From the NCBI GenBank assembly GCA_944383955.1, contig CALWRP010000103.1, forward strand, positions 1-64,000: a stretch of DNA of 64,000 nt, read 5' to 3'. A program made the position numbers and the translations under genes. A model generated the notes under the pieces. It saw only the letters and a program-made list of their open reading frames with translations. It had not been told where the DNA came from and made no database searches. Positions within the stretch are counted from its first letter, which is position 1. Each line of letters begins with the position of its first letter. Source of the stretch: an uncultured Clostridia bacterium (GTDB lineage: Bacteria > Bacillota > Clostridia > Oscillospirales > Acutalibacteraceae). Positions 14,414-17,687 of the stretch are shown in pieces.

Positions 14414-14442
14414 TTGAATTTAGAGCGCGCTTATCCTAAAAT
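14414..14442 (+). promoter_or_regulatory. Predicted promoter of the purine operon
   Basis: TTGAAT (14414-14419), 17 bases, TAAAAT (14437-14442). It gives a leader of about 210 bases before purE holding a short open reading frame and a terminator. Confidence 0.65.
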
Positions 14443-14495
14443 GGGAGAAGAAGCTTTTCCGGATCCCCGGAAATAGACGTTGGAGGGAGAGCGCG

Positions 14496-14555
14496 ATGAA
14501 AGCATGGTTTCTGTGTCGTTCCGCAGAGCCGCATTGCGCCGATTTTCACCCATAA
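14496..14555 (+). CDS. Putative 19-residue leader peptide of the pur operon
   Basis: ATG 14496 follows a strong GGAGGGAG site by 6-9 bases and encodes MKAWFLCRSAEPHCADFHP, then TAA. The stop lies 10 bases before an intrinsic terminator stem, the usual layout of a translated attenuator. The ending Asp-Phe-His-Pro-stop and the early Trp-Phe recall the arrest peptide TnaC, which ends Asp-His-Arg-Pro-stop. No run of a single regulatory amino acid is present, so simple starvation-type attenuation is less likely. What is seen is the reading frame, ribosome site and terminator; the regulatory role is inferred. Confidence 0.6.
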   Translation: MKAWFLCRSAEPHCADFHP

Positions 14556-14565
14556 CCGGGAACAC

Positions 14566-14611
14566 AGCAGGCTGCGCAGCAGAGGTTGCCGCAGCCTGCT
14601 TTTCTTTGTTT
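14566..14611 (+). terminator. Attenuator terminator in the purE leader
   Basis: Perfect 11-bp arms AGCAGGCTGCG (14566-14576) and CGCAGCCTGCT (14590-14600) with a 13-base loop, then TTTCTTTGTTT. It lies between the leader peptide and purE, so it must be bypassed for operon expression. The leader segment CGCAGAGCC (14522-14530) can pair, with one bulge, to the left arm GGCTGCG (14570-14576), giving a possible antiterminator. Confidence 0.75.
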
Positions 14612-14660
14612 GCGGGTTGGGGAGCTCTCCGCGTGAGCGAATGGAGAAAGAGAAAGGAAG

Positions 14661-15164
14661 ATGTCTGTGAAAAAGGTAGCAGTTATCATGGGAAGCGACA
14701 GCGATTTTCCGGTGGTATCGCCCGCAATCAAACGCCTCAAGGAGCTCGGCATTCCGGTGGAGGCTCACGTGATGTCCGCCCACAGAACGCCTGACGCCGC
14801 CGCCGCGTTCTCCGCGAACGCCGCGCAGAACGGCTTCGGCGTGATCATCGCCGCCGCCGGCAAGGCCGCGCACCTGGGAGGCGTGCTCGCCGCGCACACC
14901 ACGCTGCCCGTCATCGGCATCCCCGTCAAGTCCTCCACGCTCGACGGCCTCGACGCCCTGCTCGCCACCGTGCAGATGCCCAGCGGCATCCCGGTTGCCA
15001 CCGTCGCCATCGACGGCGCGGACAACGCCGCCATCCTGGCCGCGCAGATGCTCGCCCTCTCCGATGAAGCTCTGGCCGCCCGCCTGCTGGAGATGAAGAA
15101 GACCATGGCCGAGGGCGTGGCGAAGAAGGACGCCGCCCTGCAGGAGAAGGTCGCCGCCCTCTGA
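14661..15164 (+). CDS. purE: N5-carboxyaminoimidazole ribonucleotide mutase
   Basis: A class I PurE, moving the carboxyl of N5-CAIR to C4 to give CAIR in purine synthesis. At 167 residues it has normal length. The phosphate-binding GSDSDF lies at residue 11, the motif SAHRTP carries the catalytic His, and [14 protein letters not shown] matches the class I GGAAHLPG loop with a Lys in place of Gly and a Gly in place of Pro. [14 protein letters not shown] is also typical. No purK (N5-CAIR synthase) is in the window. It is the first structural gene of the operon, behind the leader-peptide attenuator, with AGGAAG before its ATG. Confidence 0.93.
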
Positions 15165-16352: not shown

Positions 16353-16975
16353 ACATTGCGGTGCTCGTCTCCGGCGGCGGCACGAACCTGCAGGCGCTCA
16401 TCGACGCGCAGGGCAGGGGAGAGCTTCCGAACGGTAAAATTGCCCTGGTTCTCGCCAGCAAGCCCGGCGTCTATGCGCTCGAGCGCGCGGCGAAGGCCGG
16501 AATTCCCACAGACGTTCTCGTGCGCCGCGAGTTCCCGACGCAGCAGGCCTACGACGAGGCCCTCATCGGCAGGCTCGAGGCGGCCGGAATCGATCTGATT
16601 GTGCTGGCAGGCTTTCTCACCATCATCAGCGAGACGGTCGTCAGCCGCTTTGAAAACAGAATCATCAACGTGCACCCGTCGCTCATCCCCTCGTTCTGCG
16701 GGGAGGGCTTCTACGGCCTGCGCGTCCACGAGGAGGCGCTGCGCCGCGGCGTGAAGGTGACGGGCGCGACCGTCCACTTCGTCAACACCGTCTGCGACGG
16801 CGGCCCGATCATTCTCCAGCACGCGGTCGAGGTGCAGGAGGGGGACACCCCCGAGGTGCTCCAGCGCCGCGTGATGGAGCAGGCCGAGTGGAAGCTGCTG
16901 CCGAAGGCGGTCGCCCTCTTCTGCGCGGGCCGGCTCACCGTCGAGGGCGCGATTGTGCATATCAGGGAGGAGTAA
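16346..16975 (+). CDS. purN: Phosphoribosylglycinamide formyltransferase
   Basis: Transfers the formyl group of 10-formyl-THF to GAR. 209 residues with [19 protein letters not shown] at the N-terminus (phosphate loop), the catalytic trio region [10 protein letters not shown] with Asn and His, and the catalytic Asp in [14 protein letters not shown]. The start chosen is GTG 16346, eleven bases after GGAGG and overlapping the purM stop; no ATG is available nearby. The purO-type gene follows within 5 bases, so the operon is tightly packed. Confidence 0.94.
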
Positions 16976-16979
16976 GAAC

Positions 16980-17687
16980 ATGAACGTGAAGGACATGAAG
17001 GCGGAGATCGCCTCCACCAGCTACCCCGGCCGCGGCATCCTGCTCGGCCGCAGCGAGGACGGCAAAAAGGCCGTCATCGCCTATTTCATCATGGGACGCA
17101 GCGCGAACAGCCGCAACCGCGTCTTCGAGGCGATGGGCGACGATCTGCGCACCCGCGCCTTCGACGAGAGCAGGATGGAGGATCCGAGCCTCGTCATCTA
17201 TAACGCCGTCCGCGTGCTCGGCGATACGACCATTGTGACGAACGGCGATCAGACCGATACGATTTATGATTTCCTCGCCGAGGGGAAGACGTGGGAGGAG
17301 GCGCTGCGCACGCGCACCTTCGAGCCCGACGGCCCGAACTTCACGCCCCGCATTTCCGGCGTCGTCTGCAACAAGACGGGCGCCTACCGCCTCTCGATCC
17401 TCAAGAGCGACAACGGCGACGAGACCTCGGCCCAGCGCTTCTTCTATGAGTACGCGCAGCCGAAGGCCGGCGAGGGCCATTTCATCCACACCTACATGGG
17501 AGACGGCAATCCGCTCCCGTCCTATGAGGGCGAGCCCACCCTGGTGACGGTGCGCGGCGATCTCGCCCAGTTCACGGAGGACGTGTGGCAGTCTCTCGAT
17601 CCCGAGAACAAGATTTCCCTCTTCACCCGCTTCATCGACCTCGAGACGGGCAAGTGGGAGACGGAGATCCGCAACAAGAATCAGTGA
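16980..17687 (+). CDS. purO: IMP cyclohydrolase, PurO-type
   Basis: 235 residues of the archaeal-type IMP cyclohydrolase family, which closes FAICAR to IMP in the last step of purine synthesis. The diagnostic opening YPGRGILLGRSEDGKKAVIAYFIMGR, then SANSRNRVFE, lies at residues about 15-50, with the later segments TNGDQTD and PNFTPRISG. In most bacteria this step is done by the unrelated N-terminal domain of PurH, so its use here beside a separate AICAR formyltransferase is a split solution also found in other clostridia. The ATG follows GGGAGGAG. It sits between purN and the formyltransferase gene, 29 bases from the latter. Confidence 0.92.
   Translation: MNVKDMKAEIASTSYPGRGILLGRSEDGKKAVIAYFIMGRSANSRNRVFEAMGDDLRTRAFDESRMEDPSLVIYNAVRVLGDTTIVTNGDQTDTIYDFLAEGKTWEEALRTRTFEPDGPNFTPRISGVVCNKTGAYRLSILKSDNGDETSAQRFFYEYAQPKAGEGHFIHTYMGDGNPLPSYEGEPTLVTVRGDLAQFTEDVWQSLDPENKISLFTRFIDLETGKWETEIRNKNQ

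What the first reader, a model, noticed from the sequence alone, without database searches (positions are those of the whole stretch)
14414..14660. Leader-peptide attenuator in front of the purine operon, ending Asp-Phe-His-Pro-stop
Seen: a promoter, an ideal GGAGGGAG site, a 19-codon ORF (14496-14555) and a strong terminator (14566-14611) before purE. Known: TnaC stalls ribosomes with Trp-Phe followed by Asp-x-x-Pro-stop at the stop codon. Here the peptide has Trp4-Phe5 and ends Asp-Phe-His-Pro-stop. The terminator stem starts ten bases after the stop, so a stalled ribosome would cover its left base and favour read-through. The leader stretch 14522-14530 can also pair with the terminator left arm (14570-14576). 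The peptide has no codon run for one amino acid, so nascent-chain sensing of a small molecule (a purine-pathway metabolite, for example) is an attractive guess. I know of no such arrest peptide for a purine operon.
Basis: partly seen in the sequence, partly recalled or inferred. Interest (0 to 1): 0.8.

Follow-up and report, generated by a model that had tools for sequence, protein, structure and literature searches.

The report
Ribosome-gated purine operon attenuator
In front of a gut bacterium's purine-making genes sits a tiny reading frame that ends at a transcription stop signal and often holds a sequence that looks like a polymerase pause site; the layout recurs in relatives although the peptide does not, which suggests a switch that reads purine supply from how RNA polymerase and ribosome keep pace.

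Summary
The anatomy is real: promoter, SD, 19-codon ORF (14496-14555), terminator (14566-14600), purE. The arrest-peptide reading is not supported: D-x-x-P-stop occurs in 1 of 90 uORFs listed, and over 11 pairs pN/pS is 0.28/0.39 against 0.05/0.55 for purE. What recurs is layout: 28 of 71 non-redundant purE leaders with a terminator have an SD-led short ORF stopping at the stem base, 1.6 expected.
About half of the uORFs carry a linear motif, GG-N6-TGY then purine: 21 of 41 against 3.5 expected, 10 of 23 held-out against 1.7, but 5 of 75 ordinary terminated gene ends. It equals the published consensus RNA polymerase pause; the next base is G or A, rarely C or T. The window's own site matches 5 of 6 positions.
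Best reading: a peptide-independent attenuator working like E. coli pyrBI. Low GTP/ATP holds RNAP at the pause, a ribosome catches up, sits at the stop codon and blocks the terminator. In 18 of 86 genomes a ZTP riboswitch fills this slot, never with a strict uORF. New variant of a known kind; pausing and sensing are inferred, not measured.

The parts
14414..14442 (+). sigma-70-type promoter, -35 TTGAAT, 17-nt spacer, -10 TAAAAT
   Evidence: consensus match only, transcription start not mapped
14482..14489 (+). Shine-Dalgarno GGAGGGAG of the leader ORF
14496..14555 (+). 19-codon leader ORF (uORF) MKAWFLCRSAEPHCADFHP*; presence and stop position recur in relatives, peptide mostly does not
14510..14527 (+). 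possible pause hairpin UCUGUG/CGCAGA, base 10 nt from the paused RNA 3' end; nucleotide-identical in G003 and G005
   Evidence: printed as best for L002, while for the window another fold (gap 13) scored better; no general hairpin in other leaders (Wilcoxon p 0.16); suggestive only
14527..14538 (+). consensus-pause-like site AGCCGCATTGCG: G-10 = 14528, T-3 14535, G-2 14536, C-1 = 14537, next base G+1 = 14538; 5 of 6 consensus positions (A instead of G at -11)
   Evidence: the full motif is enriched in relatives
14566..14611 (+). intrinsic terminator, 11-bp stem 14566-14576/14590-14600, U-rich tail to 14611
14661..15164 (+). purE, first of a same-strand cluster purE-purM-purN-IMP cyclohydrolase-like-AICAR formyltransferase-purD-glyA (to 21617); cotranscription assumed

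Best explanation
A transcription attenuator run by ribosome position, not by peptide sequence. RNAP leaves the promoter and soon exposes the SD. Some 40-60 nt into the uORF it meets a consensus elemental pause whose next nucleotide is G or A. With plentiful purine NTPs RNAP leaves the pause quickly, outruns the ribosome, and the terminator folds: operon off. With scarce GTP/ATP the pause lasts, a ribosome loads and catches up, follows RNAP to the uORF stop codon next to the stem, and keeps the stem from closing: read-through, purE operon on. Shown: the parts, their spacing and recurrence, near-neutral peptide evolution, enrichment of the motif and its purine +1. Inferred: that RNAP of these bacteria pauses there, that the pause senses purine NTPs in vivo, and that translation lowers termination.
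For: uORF stop at the stem base in 28 of 71 leaders against 1.6 expected. Stop-to-stem median 6 nt, range -10 to 17, for 37 of 42 hand-listed uORFs (5 gave no terminator by that rule), against median 17 for 75 genes of G030 and 31 for 12 genes of the window. pN/pS 0.28/0.39 against 0.05/0.55 for purE over 11 pairs. GG-N6-TGCG ranks first of the 259 gapped motifs seen in at least 5 leaders (13 of 41, 1.2 expected). Next base G 13, A 9, C 2, T 0 leaders against 1.9, 1.6, 1.3, 1.9 expected. Held-out set, test noted first: 10 of 23 against 1.7; G 7, A 4, C 1, T 0; 8 of 12 sites 10-24 nt before the stop end. Controls: 5 of 75 terminated gene ends, 18 of 327 gene ends, 2 of 18 ZTP leaders. Literature: consensus G-11G-10T-3G-2Y-1G+1 (PMC6062546, passages); escape needs GTP, and bypass falls from about 22% to 7% from 100 to 10 uM GTP (PMC6336406, passages); a stop 5 bp before a terminator cuts termination from about 90% to under 10% if translated (PMC4824070, Results part 1 of 2).
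Against: 20 of 41 and 13 of 23 uORFs lack the full motif. The window's own site lacks G-11, and 5 of 6 matches are common by chance (39 of 51 leaders against 24 expected). Congener G004/L007 has promoter and terminator but no recognisable SD-led ORF. In 86 genomes 28 have a terminator but neither strict uORF nor ZTP, and 19 no terminator by the rule. RNAP of these bacteria has not been assayed; Bacillus NusG-dependent pauses use another motif, TTNTTT (PMC12288461, passages). If RNAP outruns ribosomes here as in B. subtilis (PMC13323073, passages), coupling must depend on the pause. Ordinary G030 genes often end near terminators too (32% within 12 nt), and the uORFs were hand-listed. Low GTP also slows translation, which would oppose the effect.
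Confidence: 0.6

Rival explanations
1. Nascent-peptide arrest (TnaC-like): the peptide stalls the ribosome at its stop codon when it binds a small molecule.
For: In the window the peptide has Trp-Phe and ends Asp-Phe-His-Pro-stop. Short segments recur: CRxAE in the window's genus and in L019/L045 (CRIVE in L046), with silent codon changes between G000 and G001; YGVFAC in L018 and L200. L045/L019 have pN 0.16, pS 0.61. I raised this from 0.06 to 0.08 when the recount showed it.
Against: D-x-x-P-stop in 1 of 90, Pro-stop in 4 of 90, no residue in all; C-termini differ even inside the genus; pooled pN/pS near neutral; enriched motif in three frames. From memory, E. coli TnaC needs Trp 12 and Asp 8 residues before the final Pro; the window has Cys and Glu there.
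Confidence: 0.08
2. Ribosome-coupled attenuator without a purine-NTP pause: any change in the translation/transcription balance sets read-through, for example leader initiation sensing fMet-tRNA and so 10-formyl-THF, or (p)ppGpp.
For: Same uORF and terminator data. The cluster holds purN and AICAR formyltransferase, which use 10-formyl-THF (known biochemistry), and glyA. PMC11109978 (passages) proposes tRNA-fMet sensing for a Streptococcus fthC uORF.
Against: Does not explain the pause consensus with purine +1. For fMet sensing the sign is wrong unless less initiation raises expression.
Confidence: 0.2
3. The GG-N6-TGYR motif is an RNA- or DNA-binding site of an unknown regulator or part of an unknown aptamer, and the uORF is secondary.
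For: In the first set the motif extends to TGCRYNYA (14 of 41, 1.8 expected).
Against: The extension did not hold in the held-out set (2 of 23, 1.1 expected). No matched pairing with the SD region (p 0.32) or of the ORF with the terminator arm (p 0.66). The spacing equals the published pause consensus. Stop-codon placement is unexplained.
Confidence: 0.1
4. Classical amino-acid attenuation by codons in the uORF.
For: Phe 8.7% against 5.1% and Lys 5.2% against 2.5% in a shuffled null.
Against: Only 4 of 90 peptides have a run of three equal residues (Arg, Ser, Phe, Ile once each) and no residue is in all; no antiterminator pairing.
Confidence: 0.04

Closest known systems
E. coli pyrBI (pyrL) attenuator
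   Same: Leader ORF with its own SD, terminator before the first gene, NTP-sensitive RNAP pausing, ribosome catch-up prevents the terminator, peptide sequence unimportant (mechanism from memory; coupling across pyrL also stated in PMC5021804, passages).
   Different: Purine genes in Clostridia; a consensus elemental pause with purine +1 instead of a U-rich pause tract; the uORF stops at the stem instead of running through it (pyrL details from memory). No sequence relation tested.
ZTP/ZMP riboswitch (RF01750) in front of purE
   Same: Same place (leader, terminator, purE) in relatives: 18 of 86 genomes, a lower bound because one search used strict filters.
   Different: An aptamer without a strict uORF. 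No match in the window, in L001, L005, L009, L019 or in L180, L196, L198, L200. The one ZTP match in the window's own genome lies before pflB.
TnaC arrest peptide
   Same: Short uORF, Pro-stop in the window, terminator nearby.
   Different: Spacing of key residues (from memory) and conservation fail; intrinsic terminator here, Rho at tna (from memory).
Streptococcus fthC uORF candidate (uORFC-39-1, PMC11109978)
   Same: SD-like site and uORF followed by an intrinsic terminator before a one-carbon gene (passages).
   Different: 69 representatives in one genus, three hairpins, other gene, no pause motif in the passages seen.

Membership tests
pyrBI-type attenuator | SD-led leader ORF and intrinsic terminator between promoter and first gene | tested here: met
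pyrBI-type attenuator | translation reaches close enough to cover the terminator | tested here: met
   by sequence: 37 of 42 uORFs, stop -10 to 17 nt from the stem, 5 without a terminator by the rule
pyrBI-type attenuator | peptide sequence not constrained | tested here: met
   pooled pN/pS 0.28/0.39 over 11 pairs; short shared segments in some clades
pyrBI-type attenuator | pause site in the leader whose next NTP is a product of the pathway | tested here: inconclusive
   consensus site with purine +1 enriched; pausing itself not measured; window site 5 of 6
pyrBI-type attenuator | read-through rises when the product NTP falls | not testable with these tools
   needs experiment
TnaC arrest peptide | conserved Trp and Asp at fixed spacing to final Pro | tested here: not met
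   spacing recalled; window has Cys and Glu at those places; D-x-x-P-stop 1 of 90, Pro-stop 4 of 90
TnaC arrest peptide | purifying selection on the peptide | tested here: not met
   pooled; one pair (L045/L019) leans the other way
Amino-acid codon attenuator | run of one amino acid's codons and terminator/antiterminator switch | tested here: not met
ZTP riboswitch RF01750 | covariance-model match in the leader | tested here: not met
   no Rfam match at gathering score in the window; the own genome's one match lies on another contig

The most novel reading that the evidence does not exclude
RNA polymerase itself is the purine sensor: many genera of one bacterial order carry, in the slot where relatives keep a ZTP riboswitch, a pyrBI-like but independently built attenuator in which a consensus pause gated by GTP or ATP times ribosome arrival at the terminator. 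It would be a ligand-free, peptide-free substitute for a riboswitch.
Probability: 0.5. Interest if true: 0.85.

Novelty: new variant of a known kind. Interest (0 to 1): 0.75.

Why it matters
If true, it shows how a metabolic operon can use a purely kinetic NTP sensor where relatives use an aptamer, gives a natural role to the consensus elemental pause, and shows transcription-translation coupling used for regulation in a group where RNAP may outrun ribosomes. It also predicts the purine control of many gut bacteria from sequence, and warns that searches for leader ORFs by peptide conservation would miss this type.

Tried and rejected
Antiterminator pairing between ORF and terminator arm: mean z +0.2, permutation p 0.66, rejected. 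SD paired by the ORF: mean z -0.72 over 42 leaders, but pairing with the pause region is no better than permuted (p 0.32); left open, not used. Pause hairpin as a general part: no significant excess (lower energy than shuffles only at gap 7, p 0.16). Extension of the motif to TGCRYNYA: not in the held-out set. Rfam on the window: none at gathering score. purF leaders: looked by eye at 13 of the 30 purF loci fetched, five of them from the window's genus; saw no such uORF; the own genome's second purF copy was not looked at. Other AGGCTG/CAGCCT terminators in the own genome: two further places, neither before a purine gene as I read them by eye. Scan of the window plus 400 kb of G030: 743 terminator-like hairpins, 9 SD-led short ORFs; the two purE leaders are the only ones with ATG start, 19 or more codons and an ORF directly downstream; the nearest other is a 30-codon TTG frame before what looks like a tRNA synthetase gene (L158). 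Literature: ten searches; in the listings shown I saw no purine-operon leader ORF of this kind; subscription journals are mostly missing from that library.

Mistakes and choices: one search stopped on a file error. One search read the minus-strand loci in the wrong orientation; corrected. The 43 ORFs were picked by eye, so the automatic count and the held-out set carry the claim. In one search nine leaders were added by hand (six of them missed by the strict rule); with L003 left out as a duplicate this gave 51, and 10 near relatives were removed by hand to leave 41. The motif was noticed by reading before it was recognised as the pause consensus, hence the held-out test. That test departed from its note in one point: ORF starts up to 130 nt, not 110, before the stem. 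Of its 100 genomes 25 gave no terminator or were too short (L291), 38 a strict uORF, and 15 of these were dropped as over 0.8 similar to earlier leaders or each other; 7 of 100 failed a loose check of the purE start and were kept. The rule was slightly looser than that.

Full report
Setting. The window lies in a Clostridia genome whose nearest named match by PurE is Anaeromassilibacillus sp. An200 (92%). NCBIfam names the cluster purE, purM, purN, a PurO-like IMP cyclohydrolase (below cut-off), a stand-alone AICAR formyltransferase, purD and serine hydroxymethyltransferase. The finding's anatomy is correct, and the leader is strongly folded (z -4.4).

Comparative test of the peptide. PurE was found in 89 of 97 related genomes; 80 loci came from named records, partly the same species. 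In the window's genus, G003 and G005 have MGNWFLCRSAEPHCVNFIL and MGSWFLCRSAEPYCANFTP, G001 has MHGLLFCRLAEMSHAVPVSVF, G004 has no recognisable SD-led ORF, and the G002 contig ends. Over 90 uORFs listed in all (duplicates included), no residue is in every peptide, D-x-x-P-stop occurs once and Pro-stop four times. Against this, CRxAE recurs in the window's genus and in L019/L045, and YGVFAC in L018 and L200. Over 11 close pairs pN/pS is 0.28/0.39 for the uORFs and 0.05/0.55 for purE. Codons 4-12 of the window's uORF are identical base for base in G003 and G005, although purE silent sites differ by 32-47% and the rest of the uORF has silent changes. That points to constraint on nucleotides there.

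Comparative test of the layout. Of 110 loci, 3 had too little upstream sequence and 24 no terminator by my rule; 83 had one, 71 after removing near-duplicates. 28 of the 71 have an SD-led ORF of 10-50 codons whose stop is within -14..+20 nt of the stem base; shuffles give 1.6. By a second rule 37 of 42 hand-listed uORFs gave a terminator, with the stop at -10 to 17 nt from the stem, median 6; 75 terminated genes of relative G030 have median 17 and 12 of the window 31. In 464 kb the two purE leaders were the only ATG-started hits of 19 or more codons directly before an ORF, among 9 hits in all. Li et al. (PMC4824070, Results part 1 of 2) measured in E. coli that a stop codon 5 bp before a terminator lowers termination from about 90% to under 10% when translated, and that beyond 30 bp termination is near its maximum.

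The motif. Enumerating dinucleotide-gap-tetranucleotide patterns in 41 clade-reduced uORFs puts GG-N6-TGCG first of the 259 seen in at least 5 leaders (13 leaders, 1.2 expected; GG-N5-TGCG second). GG-N6-TGYR occurs in 21 of 41 (3.5 expected, maximum 9 in 400 shuffled sets). The base after TGY is G in 13, A in 9, C in 2, T in 0 leaders, against 1.9, 1.6, 1.3 and 1.9 expected. The 25 sites lie in all three reading frames (14/5/6), 64% of them 10-24 nt before the end of the stop codon against 25% in shuffles. Density of GG-N6-TGYG is 4.9 per kb in uORFs, 0.9 in purE and 0.5 in the G030 sample. This is the extended consensus pause G-11G-10T-3G-2Y-1G+1 quoted in PMC6062546 (passages), whose escape needs GTP and depends on its concentration (PMC6336406, passages). 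A at +1 is a departure from that consensus.

Held-out test. I noted the test before fetching. From 100 further genomes of the family, the best PurE matches of a capped list, 75 had a terminator, 38 a strict uORF, and 23 were new. 10 of 23 carry GG-N6-TGYR against 1.7 expected (maximum 6 in 400 sets); by +1 base G 7, A 4, C 1, T 0; only gaps 5 and 6 exceed every shuffled set. 8 of 12 sites are 10-24 nt before the stop end. The last 66 nt of terminated genes carry it in 5 of 75 cases, of all genes in 18 of 327, ZTP leaders in 2 of 18. The new genomes are kin of the first set, so this is a held-out, not an independent, lineage.

The slot. Of 20 loci chosen by eye, Rfam finds the ZTP riboswitch in front of purE in 16; the other four are uORF-type. 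Whole-genome search adds two. Of 86 genomes with usable purE upstream sequence (three of 89 left out: G002, G018, G019), 18 have ZTP there, 21 a strict uORF, none both, 28 a terminator with neither (some with weak-SD uORFs), 19 no terminator. Fisher p is 0.0006 among the 67 with a terminator, uncorrected for kinship. Both types occur in the window's own family (16 uORF, 11 ZTP) and in others, which suggests repeated replacement or loss; I built no tree.

Window site. The pause-like site is AGCCGCATTGCG at 14527-14538, 5 of 6 consensus positions including G-10, C-1 and G+1. Alone this is weak, since 5 of 6 is common by chance. It can follow a 6-bp hairpin whose base is 10 nt from the RNA 3' end, near the spacing of the E. 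coli his pause (from memory); it was printed as best for L002, while another fold scored better for the window. Hairpins are not general in other leaders.

Mechanism and limits. The best model is a kinetic attenuator like pyrBI, with parts and spacing shown and pausing, sensing and coupling inferred. It explains the free peptide, the placed stop, the motif and its purine +1. It does not explain the uORFs without the motif (20 of 41; 13 of 23), nor G004. No experiment was available.

Noticed in passing
L236:1416-1513 (own genome G000 C77): The one ZTP riboswitch found in the own genome lies before pyruvate formate-lyase (TIGR01255), not before a purine gene.
   Followed up: partly
window 16962-17687: IMP cyclohydrolase of archaeal PurO type (below cut-off) next to a stand-alone AICAR formyltransferase, instead of bifunctional PurH.
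   Followed up: no
L081, L083, L091, L094: In Herbinix-like and related genomes a T-box leader on the opposite strand lies upstream of purE.
   Followed up: no
L075, L288: In Faecalispora jeddahensis (L075) the uORF's terminator ends about 190 nt before purE, leaving room for a second element; L288 has a similar uORF.
   Followed up: no
G000 C122:21905-23224 and C187:56956-58275: Two purF matches over the family cut-off in the own genome.
   Followed up: no
L007 (G004): Congener with promoter and terminator but no SD-led ATG ORF; a GTG frame seems to run through the terminator up to the purE start (my reading by eye), which would be even closer to pyrL if used.
   Followed up: no
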